A stretch of DNA of 64,000 nucleotides, taken from NCBI GenBank assembly GCA_028821605.1, contig JAPPFM010000002.1, positions 186,001-250,000 of the forward strand, read 5' to 3'. The translations under genes and the position numbers were made by a program. A model generated the notes under the pieces. That model searched no databases. It had not been told where the DNA came from and worked only from the letters and a program-made list of their open reading frames with translations. This stretch comes from Candidatus Poribacteria bacterium (lineage in GTDB: Bacteria; Poribacteria; WGA-4E; WGA-3G). Each line of letters starts with the position of its first letter. The stretch's first letter is position 1. Positions 22,729-59,819 of the stretch are shown here, in pieces.

Positions 22729-23559
22729 ATGAATTTCAGCGTTATTTCTGCTGGCAAGTTTTGGCTTGTGAGCTTAGTTGTTGTATGTTTCAGTTTCTTT
22801 TTTGCTGGTATTTTGTTTGTCTCCCCCACGTTTGCCGAGATTGACCCTGATACCGTTGTCGGGGTGTGGCTTTTTGATGAAGGCAAAGGAAATGTCGCAA
22901 CCGATGCTTCAGAAAATGGTTTAGATGGCGAATTTGAAGGCAAACCTAAATGGGTTGAGGGTAAGTTTGGGATGGCACTTGAATTCGATGGGAAATCCGC
23001 TTACGTTCAGATCCCAGCGCATGAAAACCCTACTGAAGCAATAACGGTCTCAGCGTGGGCGAAGAGTGCATCCGAACTTTGGAACCAACCCGGTTGGATA
23101 GTTGAAAAACGGAACGCCTATATCATCCATCCGAACAGCGGGACAAAAAATATCGCGTGGCCGGTTTGCAATGGCGGCTGCTGGAATAAACCCGGCGGTT
23201 GGAATGACGGTAATGTTGGTACCGATGATATTACCGAATGGCACATGTACACCACCACTTACAATAGCAAGACGGGTGAGTGGTACATCTATATTGATGC
23301 CGAAGAAGCGAGCGCGTTGGATTTGGCTAAAAATCCGATTGATCTTGATACTGGTCCCGCTAATATTGGATTTGATGACTGCTGCGGGGGCGCACGCTTT
23401 GGCGCAGGTGCTGTTGACGAGGTCTTAATTCTCAGTGTCGCTTTGGAACAGGAGGACATTGAAAAACTGTATAAAAACGGACTTTATGCTGAAGTCTTGG
23501 CGGTTGAACCAGCTGATAAAATGACAACCACCTGGGCGGATGTGAAAGTCAAGTATTAG
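22729..23559 (+). CDS. Secreted LamG-domain protein 1
   Basis: This 276-residue protein has a signal peptide (hydrophobic core about 12-31, cleavage near Ala36-Glu). It begins with VVGVWLFDEGKGNVATD, the usual first strand of LamG/concanavalin A-like domains, followed by the jelly-roll strands. Cysteine pairs at CNGGC and CCGG could form disulfides. It has about 75% similarity to the next gene. Function is probably carbohydrate or matrix binding. The C-terminal tail (VEPADKMTTTWADVKVKY) is shared with two other proteins here. Confidence 0.88.
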   Translation: MNFSVISAGKFWLVSLVVVCFSFFFAGILFVSPTFAEIDPDTVVGVWLFDEGKGNVATDASENGLDGEFEGKPKWVEGKFGMALEFDGKSAYVQIPAHENPTEAITVSAWAKSASELWNQPGWIVEKRNAYIIHPNSGTKNIAWPVCNGGCWNKPGGWNDGNVGTDDITEWHMYTTTYNSKTGEWYIYIDAEEASALDLAKNPIDLDTGPANIGFDDCCGGARFGAGAVDEVLILSVALEQEDIEKLYKNGLYAEVLAVEPADKMTTTWADVKVKY

Positions 23560-23781: not shown

Positions 23782-24597
23782 ATGAATTTCAGCTCTTTTT
23801 TCTTTGGAAGACTTGCGCTTTTGAGTGTCGTGCTTACAGGTCTCTTTGCCATTAGTATTCTGATCAATTCCACCGCTTCAGCCGAGATTGACCCTGATAC
23901 TATTGTCGGGATGTGGCTTTTTGATGCGGGTAAAGGAAATGTCGCAACCGATGAGACCGGAAATGGACTGGATGGTGAATTTGAAGGTAAGCCGAAATGG
24001 GTTGATGGTCAATTTGGGAAGGGACTTGAACTTGATGGTGCTGGCGCACATATTGTTATTCCAGCCCATGAGAATCCAACAAAAGCGATCACCGTCTCTA
24101 TTTGGGCGAAAAGTCATACAGATACCTGGAACCAGCACGGCTTCCTTTTTGAAAAACGGAACGCCTATATCATCCATCCGAACGCAGGCACAAAAAATGT
24201 TTCCTGGCCCATTTGCAACGGGGGCTGTTGGAATAAGCCCGGGGGCTGGCGCGATGGGGAAATCGGTCCCAAAGATATTACCCAGTGGCACATGTACACG
24301 ACTACTTATGATAGCAAGACCGGTGAGTGGTACATCTATATTGATGGAAAAGAAGAGAGCTCACTGGATCTGACTAAAAATCCGATTGATTTGGATACCG
24401 GTCCGGTCTACATCGGTAATGATACTTGTTGTGCTGGACGATTCGGCGACGTTACTGTTGATGAGGCTGTAATCTTTGATGTCGCTTTGGAGCAAAGGGA
24501 CATTGAGTCGATGTTAGACGGTATGCATGCAGCTTTAGGGGTTGATCCTGCTGACAAGATGACAACCACTTGGGCAGAGGTGAAGGTCAAGTATTAG
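23782..24597 (+). CDS. Secreted LamG-domain protein 2
   Basis: This 271-residue tandem paralogue of the gene at 22729 has a signal peptide (cleavage near residue 34). The LamG jelly-roll opens with IVGMWLFDAGKGNVATD, and the paired cysteines (CNGGC, CCAG) and the tail VDPADKMTTTWAEVKVKY are retained. AAAGGAGG lies 8 bases before the start. The MITE between the two genes suggests it inserted after duplication or took part in it. It is predicted to be exported and to bind carbohydrate; the ligand is unknown. Confidence 0.88.
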   Translation: MNFSSFFFGRLALLSVVLTGLFAISILINSTASAEIDPDTIVGMWLFDAGKGNVATDETGNGLDGEFEGKPKWVDGQFGKGLELDGAGAHIVIPAHENPTKAITVSIWAKSHTDTWNQHGFLFEKRNAYIIHPNAGTKNVSWPICNGGCWNKPGGWRDGEIGPKDITQWHMYTTTYDSKTGEWYIYIDGKEESSLDLTKNPIDLDTGPVYIGNDTCCAGRFGDVTVDEAVIFDVALEQRDIESMLDGMHAALGVDPADKMTTTWAEVKVKY

Positions 24598-27750: not shown

Positions 27751-28119
27751 ATGCAAAACAGAATTGTTTGGATTACCGTGCTGGGGATTATCCTTCTGGT
27801 TGGGATTGGAATGATTTACGTCTTGCGCGTCCCGCGCGCGGCACCTAAAACTTATCCAGCGGATAAGGGGCCCAACTTTATTGATGTCACTGCTTATACG
27901 CCCGAAATGCAAAAGGCTTACGAACTTTTTACCCGCAAATGTAGCCGGTGTCATACTGTAGCGCGCCCGATCAATTCCACATTTGCACCAGAAGAATGGC
28001 GAAAATATGTCTATAAGATGATGCGAAAACCGGGTTCAGGACTCACTCCGAAAACGGCAGAAGAGATCATTAAATTTCTGATTTACGATTCAAAACACCG
28101 AGGGAAAAAGCCAAAATGA
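27751..28119 (+). CDS. Membrane-anchored monohaem cytochrome c-like protein
   Basis: This 122-residue protein has a single N-terminal membrane helix (about residues 6-26). The haem motif is Cys64-Ser-Arg-Cys67-His68 (KCSRCHTVARP). KMMRKPGSGLTP near residue 90 probably supplies the axial methionine. It would face the periplasm and carry electrons. Its stop codon overlaps the start of the selenoredoxin (ATGA), so translation of the two is coupled, which suggests a shared redox role. Confidence 0.85.
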   Translation: MQNRIVWITVLGIILLVGIGMIYVLRVPRAAPKTYPADKGPNFIDVTAYTPEMQKAYELFTRKCSRCHTVARPINSTFAPEEWRKYVYKMMRKPGSGLTPKTAEEIIKFLIYDSKHRGKKPK

Positions 28120-29252
28120 TCATTGAAATATCGGTTCCTAAGGGGCGGTCTATATTGGAATTCATGGTGTTAGTAGTATTTTTCTGTGCAATTGGTATAC
28201 AAATGGGATTTGCCGAGAAGAACATGAATGAAAAAGATTTTCAGATTTCAATAGATGCGCAACGCGTCGAATTTACTGCACCGCCTATTTTCAGAAATGG
28301 TGAATGGTTCGTGCCTTTAGAAGGTTTTGCCAAACAACTTGATTTGAAAGTCGAGTATCCAGAAGGTGCTAAAATGGTAGTTCTCTGCGGCGGAAAGGCA
28401 TCAGAATTATGCGTGCCTCTCCAATTGGGGGATGACGAAAAGGGGGCTGTGGAGATTGGTGGCGTAGTTTATGCGCGTCCTGCACATATCGCGGAACCCT
28501 TCGGTTTTGAGATTTATGAGGTGGCATCGAACGCTTTGGAAGTTGTCCAACCTGCACACCTCGCTCCTGAGTTCACCCTCCCCGACTTGGAAGGTATACC
28601 GAAACACTTAAAAGATTTCCGAGGGAAAAAGACCTTTCTTTACGTTTGGGGTTCGTGGTGAGGCTGTCGTGGACAACTGCCGGGCTGGCAGGAATTTTAC
28701 GCTGAACACCGTGAAAAACTAAACTTGGTTTCCGTTGCTATTGATGCGCAAGGCGCATCTGTCGTGCGTCCTTGGCATGATGCAGCAAACGCCGATTTCG
28801 TTACGCTTGTTGATTCGCAGAATGTATTCGGCACCCGTTATAACCTTAAAGCTATTCCTTACGGTGTTATGATTGATGAGGCGGGACGATTGGTTAAAGC
28901 ACCTTTCAACGTTAATGTTAGGGATCAAAAAACCCTCGCAATGCTTGAAAAGTGGCTGTCGGATCCCGACTACAATACGATGCTGCTTCGCGAGATGAAA
29001 CCATCAAGCAAACCGACTTCAAAGACTGCTACTGAAGCCGCCGCCCGCTTTCAACTCGGTCTCACTTTGCTGGAGGTAGGAAAGAAGGGAGAGGCGATGG
29101 CAGAATGGCGAAAGGCTTTAGCGTTAGATCCGCAGAATTGGATTATCCATAAGCAAATTTGGGCAGTGGAGCACCCAGACAAATTCTACAAGGACGGCGT
29201 TGATTACGGTTGGCAAAAATCACAGTTAGAGGCGGAAAAAAGTGAACCGTAG
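28116..29252 (+). CDS. Selenocysteine TlpA-like redoxin with TPR tail (UGA read-through)
   Basis: One frame runs from ATG 28116 to TAG 29252, broken only by TGA at 28659-28661. Read as selenocysteine this gives 378 residues with Trp-Sec182-Gly-Cys184-Arg where TlpA/ResA proteins have Trp-Cys-x-x-Cys. Domains: signal peptide (about 12-33), a small copper-amine-oxidase-N-like segment (VEFTAPPIFRNGEWFVPLEG), a redoxin domain (about 148-295), and a helical TPR-like tail. A 5-bp stem with a GGGCT loop starts 15 bases after the TGA, a fit to the bacterial SECIS. Coupling to cytochrome c by ATGA overlap supports a thiol-redox role. If read as two genes, the second part has no start. Confidence 0.85.
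28659..28691 (+). promoter_or_regulatory. Candidate SECIS after UGA of redoxin
   Basis: TGA (28659-28661), then 15 bases, then CTGCC (28677-28681), loop GGGCT and GGCAG (28687-28691). The spacing of 20 bases to a loop that starts with G fits bacterial SECIS models. Folding was done by eye. Confidence 0.6.
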
Positions 29253-29302: not shown

Positions 29303-29986
29303 ATGAAGGAGAGTTTGCAGAACATTGGGGACCTCATTGCTGAACCGAGTGCCGCGTTTTCGCGTCTCAAGTCGCAACCGAGATCTGGCATCGCATACAT
29401 AGTCTTTTATCTGTTTTCTGTTCTCATTGGTTGGGCTGTTTTTCCGTACACTGAAGCACTGACGGCTACAAAACTTGTGGAAGGCGGTTTGCAGCCGGAA
29501 CAAATTGAAGCTGCAGGAAATATGGGTCAGATTTTCCAGAGCATTGGTATCTTCATCGGACCGATTTTTGCAATTCTGGCGTTCATCATTATCAGTGCTC
29601 TTCTCAGGTTAGCGGCTCGATTTTTTGTCGAAGATGATACATTAAGATTTAGACATATCTATGCCGCTGTAGTCCATATTTCGCTGATTGGTTGTGTCAT
29701 ACAACTGGTGAATGCTGCGCTACTACTTGTTTTTAAAGATGTAGACGGGATCAAAAGCACTGTAGACTTAAAAATGATTCCGGGGTTGCATTTATTATTG
29801 GGAGGTGGTGCGAACCCTAAGTTGACAATGTTGCTCAGTCACATAAATCCGTTGAGTTTGTGGCTAATTGCGGTGACAGCAATAGCGATCACAGTGCTTG
29901 TTGATATAGAAAAGAACAAAGCCCGTGCCGCGGCGGTGGTGTTATGGGTACTCAGCATTCTGCCTGAGGTCGTATTTGCCACCTGA
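29303..29986 (+). CDS. Yip1-domain membrane protein 1
   Basis: The product is 227 residues from ATG at 29303 (GGGGGAAA a few bases before). It begins with a short soluble helix ending in a Pro-containing basic linker (AAFSRLKSQPRSG), then five membrane helices. This is the layout of bacterial Yip1-family proteins. The function in bacteria is not established. The next gene is a diverged copy of the same family in the same direction, with 11 bases between. Confidence 0.8.
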   Translation: MKESLQNIGDLIAEPSAAFSRLKSQPRSGIAYIVFYLFSVLIGWAVFPYTEALTATKLVEGGLQPEQIEAAGNMGQIFQSIGIFIGPIFAILAFIIISALLRLAARFFVEDDTLRFRHIYAAVVHISLIGCVIQLVNAALLLVFKDVDGIKSTVDLKMIPGLHLLLGGGANPKLTMLLSHINPLSLWLIAVTAIAITVLVDIEKNKARAAAVVLWVLSILPEVVFAT

Positions 29987-29997
29987 GCATCGGAATT

Positions 29998-30684
29998 ATG
30001 AAAGAGAGTTGGCAAAATCTCATTGATCTCATCGCGAACCCGAAAGCCACGTTCACGCGACTGAAATCTAAACCAAAGTGGGGTGTCACGTTCCTTGTCT
30101 TCTGCTTTCTTGTCGTGGTGTTGGCATGGATAGTTTTCCCATTTACGGAGAAGTTCATTAACCCACAGTATGCAGGTAAGTTAGCCGATATTGAGTTGTT
30201 TGGATCTACCAAAGCCGCAGCTATGGTGCTTGTTGCGGTGAGTGGAATTATTCTTGGGATTCTCTGTGCTGTTGTGTTCAGTATTGGACTCACCGTGGTA
30301 TCGAGAGTTTTCAAGGTAAATGAGGCACTCAAATTTAAACACATCTTCGCGGCTTGGTGGCATACTATCTTGATTAATCCATTGATATTTTTTATCAATA
30401 TCGCATTTCTTCCAGTTTTTAGGCACCTTGAGGATATTGAGACAGTTGTTGATATGCGAATTATTCCCGGAGTCCACATGTTGGTGACATCCGTCGAAAA
30501 TCCACATCTTCTGTTTTTTTTCAGTTATATAGATATCTTGGGTATATGGAATATTTTTGTTTTAACTGTAGCTGTTTCTACACTTGCGGAAGTTAGTAAA
30601 GCAAAGGCGTGTCTTACGGCAGTAATCATTTGGCTATTAAGAATCGGCGTTGATACTTTATTCCAGGTTGGTTCTTCTTCTTAA
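29998..30684 (+). CDS. Yip1-domain membrane protein 2
   Basis: The product is 228 residues, a tandem paralogue of the gene at 29303: the N-termini MKESLQNIGDLIAEPSAAF and MKESWQNLIDLIANPKATF align directly. It has five membrane helices. The start follows the upstream stop by 11 bases, so co-transcription is likely. The giant DUF4175 gene starts 67 bases later and also has N-terminal membrane helices. The function is unknown. Confidence 0.8.
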   Translation: MKESWQNLIDLIANPKATFTRLKSKPKWGVTFLVFCFLVVVLAWIVFPFTEKFINPQYAGKLADIELFGSTKAAAMVLVAVSGIILGILCAVVFSIGLTVVSRVFKVNEALKFKHIFAAWWHTILINPLIFFINIAFLPVFRHLEDIETVVDMRIIPGVHMLVTSVENPHLLFFFSYIDILGIWNIFVLTVAVSTLAEVSKAKACLTAVIIWLLRIGVDTLFQVGSSS

Positions 30685-58808: not shown

Positions 58809-59819
58809 TTAATTTGACGTTTCCAAAGTTTTGAAGAAATCAACTAAATCCGCACCGTGTGTCCCGGCGTTGACGTTTTTGTCGATTTCCAAGATTTTCC
58901 CAGTTTTGTCAATGACAACGGCTAATCGCTGAATCTTGCCGTCTGGGGCATTCGTTGCGCCGTAGAGGAGCGCGAGGTTGCGTCCAGTGTCCACCAAAAG
59001 CGGGAAGTTCAACTGATTTTCTGCCGAAAATTTCTGATGAGATTCTGCGTCGTTCGACGTAATTCCAAAGACCTGTGCATCGTATTTTTCAAAACTACTC
59101 GACTCATCCCGGAGCGAGCAAACTTGCGCCGTTCAGCCACGCCCGAAATCGCGTGGATAGAACGCTAATACGACGTTCTTTTTCTCATATAATTTACTCA
59201 GTTGGTGCGTTTTACCGGTTCCATCAATCGCGATAAAGTCTGGCGCGGATTGCCCAACCTCTATCTTCGGTAGAACTTCCTTGAGCAGTGCGGCCACATC
59301 TTCACCGTGCGTTTTAACGTTGACTTCTCTATCAATGGCACGGATGTATCCTGCTTTATCAATGATAAATGTTGTCCGTTTTGAGGCGTTGAAACGTTCG
59401 ATAATCCCGCTGTACTGGTTGCTCACCTCAAATTCAGTGTCGGCTAAGAGTGAAAATCCGAATTTTTCTTCTTCCCTAAACCGTTTATGTGAATCAACAT
59501 CGTCAACACTGACCCCGAAAAGGACGCTGTCGGTTGCTTCTATCTCGCTCAAACTATCCCGGAGCGAGCAAAGTTCAGCCGTTCAGCCGCCTGTAAAGTC
59601 TTTAGGATAAAAGGCGAGGACGACATTCTTTTTCCCTAAATAGTCGCTGAGGCTCCGCTCAACGCCTTCTTCATCTTGCAATGTAAAATCGGGGGCGATC
59701 ATGCCCACTTTTAGCGTGTCTGGCGTTATCACTGCTTCCTCCCCTGAAGCTGTTGGAATCAAAATAGCTGTTATGAGGATAACAGCCCAAACGCTTGCAT
59801 TAAGCCATGTTTGAAACAT
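58809..59819 (-). CDS. Two-domain PrxQ-like selenoperoxiredoxin (two UGA codons)
   Basis: One frame from ATG 59819 to the stop at 58809 is interrupted only by TGA at 59583-59585 and at 59133-59135, exactly 150 codons apart. Read as selenocysteine this gives 336 residues. Residues 1-25 are a signal peptide. Domain 1 has FYPKDFTGG-Sec79-TAELC84; domain 2 has FYPRDFGRG-Sec229-TAQVC234. In PrxQ/BCP these places hold the peroxidatic Cys and, five residues on, the resolving Cys. Both TGA codons replace the peroxidatic Cys. Each is followed by a 7-bp hairpin. GGAGG and a full-consensus promoter precede. It would reduce peroxides in the cell envelope. Confidence 0.92.
59098..59135 (-). promoter_or_regulatory. 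Candidate SECIS after the second UGA
   Basis: After TGA (59135-59133) come 14 bases, then CTCGCTC (59118-59112), loop CGGGAT and GAG-T-CGAG (59105-59098). This gives a 7-bp stem with one bulged T. Loop spacing of 21 bases fits bacterial SECIS. It is nearly the same as the first one. Confidence 0.65.
59544..59585 (-). promoter_or_regulatory. Candidate SECIS after the first UGA
   Basis: After TGA (59585-59583) come 14 bases, then CTCGCTC (59568-59562), an 11-base loop starting CGGG, and GAGCGAG (59550-59544). The 7-bp stem is perfect. Confidence 0.7.

What the first reader, a model, noticed from the sequence alone, without database searches (positions are those of the whole stretch)
28116..29252. 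Selenocysteine TlpA-like redoxin with a Trp-Sec-Gly-Cys centre, coupled to cytochrome c
The frame continues through one TGA at the exact thioredoxin active site and joins a redoxin N-half and C-half that each make sense only together. The motif is U-x-C, shorter by one residue than the usual CxxC. A stem with a G-starting loop follows at the SECIS distance. The ATGA overlap with a haem protein suggests a periplasmic electron path to a selenol.
Basis: partly seen in the sequence, partly recalled or inferred. Interest (0 to 1): 0.88.

Follow-up and report, generated by a model that had tools for sequence, protein, structure and literature searches.

The report
Selenium-containing ResA-like redoxin of Poribacteria

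Summary
Window 28116-29252 is one gene in a Candidatus Poribacteria genome, read through TGA 28659-28661 as Sec182 in WGSW-U-G-C-R. All 56 non-redundant homologues, down to about 30% identity, keep TGA at this column; none has Cys. Downstream codons are under purifying selection (dN/dS 0.09-0.12). A 5-bp stem with a GG-containing loop sits at UGA+16..+30 in 56/56 homologues (synonymous shuffles: 14.6 +/- 3.3), with synonymous CTG/CAG to TTG/CAA compensation in three. The genome has selA, selB, selD and tRNA-Sec.

The protein is probably an exported ResA/TlpA-like thiol-disulfide oxidoreductase: signal segment, Cu_amine_oxidN1-like domain with an invariant Cys pair (C91, C99), UGC redoxin, TPR and tail.

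The kind is known: 'UGC-containing Prx-like/TlpA' selenoproteins (2008; 2026 review) and NCBIfam NF041054, whose cut-off (300 bits) this clade misses (160).

The cytochrome c link is only partly supported. The ATGA overlap is real and conserved in one family, but the cytochrome persists in genomes without the redoxin and deeper redoxins lack it. Exchange between the UGC centre and C91/C99 is an untested mechanism.

The parts
28116..29252 (+). selenoprotein gene: Cu_amine_oxidN1-like / UGC redoxin / TPR protein, 378 aa with Sec182
   Evidence: open frame under TGA=U; Pfam domains; 56 homologues with TGA; AlphaFold2 model mean pLDDT 83
28116..28217 (+). N-terminal signal/anchor segment (about residues 1-34)
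   Evidence: charged then hydrophobic stretch followed by GFA-E (sequence); low-confidence helix 11-29 in the model; no signal-peptide predictor was run
28251..28547 (+). Cu_amine_oxidN1-like domain (Pfam match residues 46-94; the beta-rich N domain of the model runs to about residue 144) with invariant C91 and C99
   Evidence: PF07833 24.2 bits, at its cut-off; 42/50 homologues at E<=0.01; C91 and C99 invariant; model strands
28386..28412 (+). invariant cysteine pair C91...C99 on two successive strands (E87-91, E99-104); candidate second redox site
28557..28898 (+). AhpC-TSA/Redoxin domain, ResA/TlpA-like, residues 148-261, with invariant P248 (presumed cis-Pro)
   Evidence: PF00578 53.3 bits, PF08534 50.3 bits; ResA best structural match; P248 invariant
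28659..28661 (+). UGA codon for Sec182
   Evidence: 45/45 TGA in the codon alignment; 56/56 in all homologues
28665..28667 (+). codon of resolving Cys184 (U-x-C)
   Evidence: invariant
28677..28691 (+). bSECIS stem-loop CUGCC-GGGCU-GGCAG
   Evidence: intact in 56/56 homologues vs 14.6 expected; synonymous two-sided compensation
29037..29249 (+). TPR and conserved C-terminal block (KQIWAxExPxxFYxGxxDxxWQ)
   Evidence: TPR_2 match in 50/50 homologues; invariant K346 Q347 W349 P354 F357 Y358 D363 W366 Q367
27751..28119 (+). putative membrane-anchored single-haem c-type cytochrome (CSRCH); its stop TGA overlaps the redoxin ATG (ATGA, 28116-28119)
   Evidence: no Pfam cytochrome model over its cut-off

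Best explanation
The gene encodes a genuine selenoprotein. UGA 28659-28661 is decoded as Sec by SelB with tRNA-Sec, directed by the stem-loop 28677-28691 inside the coding sequence. The product is an exported ResA/TlpA-like thiol-disulfide oxidoreductase: Sec182 sits where the nucleophilic Cys of the thioredoxin WCxxC motif sits, and Cys184 resolves the selenenyl-sulfide bond, with the usual two-residue spacer shortened to one (U-x-C). The most likely job is to reduce or reshuffle disulfides of cell-envelope substrates. The invariant C91/C99 pair of the N-terminal domain may be a second disulfide that exchanges with the UGC centre, and the TPR/tail may bind a partner. Shown: Sec codon conservation, SECIS conservation, machinery, domain family, invariant residues. 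Predicted: fold. Inferred: export, direction of electron flow, the relay and the substrate. The confidence given is for the whole statement; for Sec decoding alone it is about 0.97.
For: Sec decoding: selA 600 bits and selB 353 bits, both over cut-off; selD over cut-off and itself with a Sec TGA; tRNA-Sec 78 bits about 290 nt from selB, anticodon TCA. TGA in 56/56 homologues. Downstream dN/dS 0.09-0.12. SECIS 56/56 vs 14.6 +/- 3.3. Two-sided synonymous change in L104, L106 and L117 with no mixed cases. SelD and some other Sec redoxins of the same genome can form hairpins with GGG- or GGT-containing loops after their UGA. Redoxin role: PF00578 and PF08534 over cut-off; ResA, StoA, TlpA and relatives are the closest solved structures by sequence and ResA by fold; invariant P248, W178, W181. 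C91 and C99 are invariant in 50 sequences down to 29% identity.
Against: No protein-level evidence. Eight genomes with the gene gave no selA match (G062, G049, G061, G078, G035, G030, G033, G015); several are incomplete, but G062 is 96% complete. No Cys homologue of this clade was found, so a Sec/Cys exchange was not seen. C91/C99 could be only a structural disulfide. Envelope location rests on the N-terminal sequence alone.
Confidence: 0.6

Rival explanations
1. Selenoprotein, but acting mainly as a peroxidase: Sec182 reduces peroxides in the cell envelope and Cys184 resolves, in keeping with the old label 'Prx-like'.
For: The domain is in the AhpC-TSA family; the GOS survey named the kind Prx-like; selenols are good peroxidatic groups (general knowledge).
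Against: The centre is the thioredoxin-type WxxW-U-x-C and not the TxxU motif listed for Sec peroxiredoxins; the thiol-peroxidase model PRK09437 scores 16.8 against a cut-off of 140; the closest structures are ResA/StoA/TlpA.
Confidence: 0.2
2. Dedicated partner of the overlapping cytochrome c: a CcmG/ResA-like reductant of its haem-binding cysteines, or an electron exchange partner.
For: 4-base ATGA overlap conserved across the host family; a relative of the cytochrome on the same contig and strand about 0.9 kb upstream in G015 (L117); ResA itself serves cytochrome c maturation (general knowledge).
Against: The cytochrome is kept in genomes without the redoxin, including G053 where a stub of the redoxin start follows it. 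Redoxins of G002, G006-G009, G011 and G012 have no such cytochrome gene in the genome. Many CxxC redoxins exist in the genome.
Confidence: 0.15
3. Not a selenoprotein: a true stop, pseudogene or sequencing error with two separate products.
For: An in-frame TTG start exists 63 nt after the TGA.
Against: TGA in 56/56 homologues from independent assemblies, purifying selection on both sides, conserved SECIS with compensation, machinery present. The split would cut the redoxin domain at its active site.
Confidence: 0.02

Closest known systems
UGC-containing Prx-like / TlpA disulfide reductase selenoproteins (Zhang and Gladyshev 2008, PMC2398784; 2026 catalogue PMC13188914, example MDE0950781.1)
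   Same: AhpC-TSA/TlpA-type redoxin with the Sec motif UGC; 46 Sec forms and 855 Cys homologues listed in GOS samples.
   Different: The passages read give a motif and a domain, with no mention of Poribacteria, of an N-terminal Cys pair, of SECIS covariation or of operon context. MDE0950781.1 itself could not be compared.
NCBIfam NF041054 WAxxUGC_long, 'ResA-like WAxxUGC motif-containing protein'
   Same: All 50 aligned homologues match it at E<=0.001, best 3.4e-54; the window protein scores 160.1 bits over residues 96-276; in deeper relatives the match spans about positions 25-325 of 354.
   Different: No Poribacteria genome reaches the curated cut-off of 300 bits. The motif is WGSWU[GA]C in the main clade and WASWUGC in deeper ones, so this is a related clade outside the equivalog.
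ResA / StoA / TlpA / DsbE thiol-disulfide oxidoreductases
   Same: Fold (3c71, 4nmu), conserved Trp and Pro, signal-like N-terminus.
   Different: U-x-C in place of C-x-x-C; extra N-terminal domain and TPR; scores far below the curated cut-offs of ResA (68.8 vs 170), TlpA (35.9 vs 230) and DsbE (20.2 vs 123).
Sec peroxiredoxins (TxxU motif)
   Same: Same Pfam superfamily, Sec in the active site; one lies in this window (58809-59819).
   Different: Different active-site motif; the finding has the thioredoxin-type centre.

Membership tests
bacterial selenoprotein (SelB/SECIS-dependent Sec insertion) | in-frame UGA at a redox residue, conserved in homologues | tested here: met
   56/56 TGA, no other codon
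bacterial selenoprotein (SelB/SECIS-dependent Sec insertion) | bSECIS: stem-loop with G in the first two loop positions, loop 16-37 nt after UGA | tested here: met
   5-bp stem, loop 20 nt after UGA, 56/56 vs 14.6 expected; the -7.5 kcal/mol limit is met only with flanking bases
bacterial selenoprotein (SelB/SECIS-dependent Sec insertion) | selA, selB, selC, selD in the genome | tested here: met
bacterial selenoprotein (SelB/SECIS-dependent Sec insertion) | selenium in the protein | not testable with these tools
   needs 75Se labelling or mass spectrometry
UGC-containing Prx-like/TlpA selenoproteins (literature kind) | pfam00578/cd02966 domain with Sec motif UGC | tested here: met
   PF00578 53.3 bits, motif U182-G-C184; some homologues have UAC
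NF041054 WAxxUGC_long (equivalog) | score at or above 300 bits | tested here: not met
   160.1 bits for the window protein; 0 of 83 Poribacteria genomes over the cut-off
ResA / TlpA / DsbE | AhpC-TSA/Redoxin fold with conserved Pro | tested here: met
ResA / TlpA / DsbE | W-C-x-x-C active site | tested here: not met
   W-U-x-C in all 56 homologues
ResA / TlpA / DsbE | curated NCBIfam cut-offs | tested here: not met
   68.8 of 170, 35.9 of 230, 20.2 of 123 bits
Sec peroxiredoxin | TxxU peroxidatic motif | tested here: not met
   motif is WGSWUGC; PRK09437 16.8 of 140 bits
Cu_amine_oxidN1 domain | Pfam gathering score 24.2 | tested here: inconclusive
   24.2 bits, exactly at the cut-off; 42/50 homologues at E<=0.01

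The most novel reading that the evidence does not exclude
A single-chain selenium redox relay: the short UGC selenenyl-sulfide centre exchanges electrons with an invariant Cys pair (C91/C99) on two successive strands of a fused copper-amine-oxidase-N-like domain, so that the protein carries its own partner disulfide, in a clade where only Sec forms were found.
Probability: 0.3. Interest if true: 0.55.

Novelty: new member of a known kind. Interest (0 to 1): 0.4.

Why it matters
It gives a complete sequence-level case for a Sec gene that ordinary annotation would cut in two, with a SECIS that covaries at silent sites. It places the UGC redoxin kind in Poribacteria, sponge symbionts for which I found no selenoprotein description in the paper library. 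It names a testable second redox site; if the relay is real, it might help to explain why selenium goes with a one-residue spacer.

Tried and rejected
Read-through as chance or pseudogene: rejected. Genome-wide recoding of TGA: rejected, because neighbouring genes end in TGA, including the upstream cytochrome (28117-28119), and the Sec machinery is present. Rfam scan of the window: no match. Plasmid tblastn for Cys versions: only remote ResA/TlpA-type proteins. Search of the phylum for a Cys-for-Sec form of this gene: none; of the other hits, those read were ordinary CxxC redoxins or other Sec redoxins. Tail fragment search for other proteins with the C-terminal block in the genome: only weak hits. 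Paper searches for WAxxUGC and for UGC thioredoxin redox potentials: nothing specific. Sigma-70 promoter scan: nothing.

Full report
Observation. The frame 28116-29252 (+) is open except for TGA 28659-28661. Reading TGA as U gives 378 aa with GKKTFLYVWGSW-U182-G-C184-RGQLPGWQ. By length alone this is not remarkable: 28 TGA-bridged frames with at least 60 codons on each side exist in the window. Conservation decides it.

Host and machinery. The window lies in a 5.99-Mb genome whose near relatives are Candidatus Poribacteria. The genome has selA at 600 bits, selB at 353 bits, selD that itself holds a Sec TGA, and tRNA-Sec at 78 bits about 290 nt from selB, confirmed by ARAGORN with anticodon TCA. 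Over the phylum, selA is found in 70 of 83 genomes. Eight genomes with the redoxin gene gave no selA match; several are incomplete, but G062 is 96% complete.

Homologues. The protein search of 85 Poribacteria genomes gave homologues with a TGA inside in about 59 of them; the G035 copy is split in two by an apparent frameshift. One Armatimonadia MAG contig also holds one (L102). After removal of duplicates, 56 sequences remain. All have TGA at the Sec column and Cys two residues later. In 45 codon-aligned sequences the column is 45/45 TGA, and median dN/dS is 0.18 upstream, 0.09 in the redoxin part after the TGA and 0.12 in the TPR part. No Cys form of this gene and no form with another codon at the site was found.

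SECIS. CTGCC-GGGCT-GGCAG (28677-28691) forms five pairs in 56/56 homologues, with an NGGNU loop (GGTCT in one). The Leu and Gln codons that close the stem are CTG with CAG in 53 sequences and TTG with CAA in 3 (L104, L106, L117, from different families of the phylum), with no mixed case; both changes are synonymous. Shuffling synonymous codons with each gene's own usage gives 14.6 +/- 3.3 intact stems, maximum 25 of 56 in 2000 trials. Related sequences are not independent, so this is not a formal probability, but protein constraint does not explain matched changes at silent sites. SelD and some other Sec genes of the genome can form hairpins with GGG- or GGT-containing loops.

Protein. Pfam finds AhpC-TSA and Redoxin over cut-off, Cu_amine_oxidN1 at cut-off, and TPR. 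The AlphaFold2 model (mean pLDDT 83.1, pTM 0.77) shows a beta-rich N domain, a thioredoxin-fold domain with Sec182 just before a helix, and C-terminal helices. Closest structures are Bacillus ResA and relatives. Invariant residues include C91, C99, W178, W181, U182, C184, P248 and a C-terminal block. C91 and C99 lie at the end and start of successive strands 87-91 and 99-104. The spacing between them varies (4 to 11 residues, mostly 7), but the pair is never lost. Most homologues have no other Cys in the part after the signal segment; most of the more distant family members from a second genus have one more.

Cytochrome neighbour. A small CSRCH protein with an N-terminal hydrophobic segment (27751-28119) overlaps the redoxin start by ATGA. 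The same overlap is seen in nearly all sequences of the host family, and the transketolase further upstream is mostly kept too. But the cytochrome is found in genomes where the redoxin is absent. In G053 the ATGA and the first codons of the redoxin remain, and the rest is gone. Deeper redoxins have no such cytochrome gene. So the pair is probably an operon in one family and not an obligate machine.

Comparison with what is known. The GOS survey lists 'Prx-like (UGC-containing)' with 46 Sec and 855 Cys sequences (PMC2398784). The reviews of 2022 (PMC9312934) and 2026 (PMC13188914) keep it as a subfamily. NCBIfam has NF041054, a ResA-like WAxxUGC protein; all aligned homologues match it, but none in the phylum reaches its cut-off. 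The finding is thus a divergent clade of a known kind. I found no paper in the library on Poribacteria selenoproteins; one sponge metagenome paper reports that SelA and SelB co-occur in most symbiont bins (PMC5649159).

Mechanism. I think it most likely that Sec182 attacks substrate disulfides in the cell envelope and Cys184 resolves. The one-residue spacer gives a smaller selenenyl-sulfide ring than CxxC does; from general knowledge, CXC disulfides in thioredoxin-fold proteins are functional but strained, and the longer Se-S bond may ease this. The C91/C99 pair may be the next partner. These steps are inference.

Noticed in passing
window 58809-59819 (-): Tandem PrxQ-type peroxiredoxin of 336 aa with two Sec codons (U79, U229), one in each of two fused domains (FTGGUTAELC and FGRGUTAQVC). 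The search found it with both TGA codons in about 60 Poribacteria genomes. The 2026 catalogue lists Prx with one Sec, so a fused two-Sec Prx may be unreported.
   Followed up: partly
L124 (G000:C30:71300-72223): SelD of the same genome is itself a selenoprotein (KCAGUASK), with a possible CGGGT-loop hairpin after the UGA.
   Followed up: partly
L121, L122, L123 (G000 contigs C10, C16, C41): Further likely Sec redoxins of the genome, with WUPFC, TUGTC and WUPNS centres.
   Followed up: partly
L131 (G053:C42): The redoxin gene is lost, but its ATGA start and first codons still follow the cytochrome gene: a natural knock-out.
   Followed up: partly
L126 (G015:C19:8816-9622): A second, distinct Sec redoxin with a WASWUAGC (UxxC) centre and a long C-terminal extension.
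   Followed up: no
window 29303-29986 and 29998-30684 (+): Two adjacent paralogous membrane proteins follow the redoxin; one or both copies may be missing in relatives.
   Followed up: no
window 22729-23559 and 23782-24597 (+): Two adjacent, closely similar genes with signal-like N-termini and a LamG-like look.
   Followed up: no
L102 (WJIW01000434.1, Armatimonadia MAG, 3039 bp): A 38% identical UGC homologue on a short contig of another phylum: transfer, old gene or mis-binned contig.
   Followed up: no
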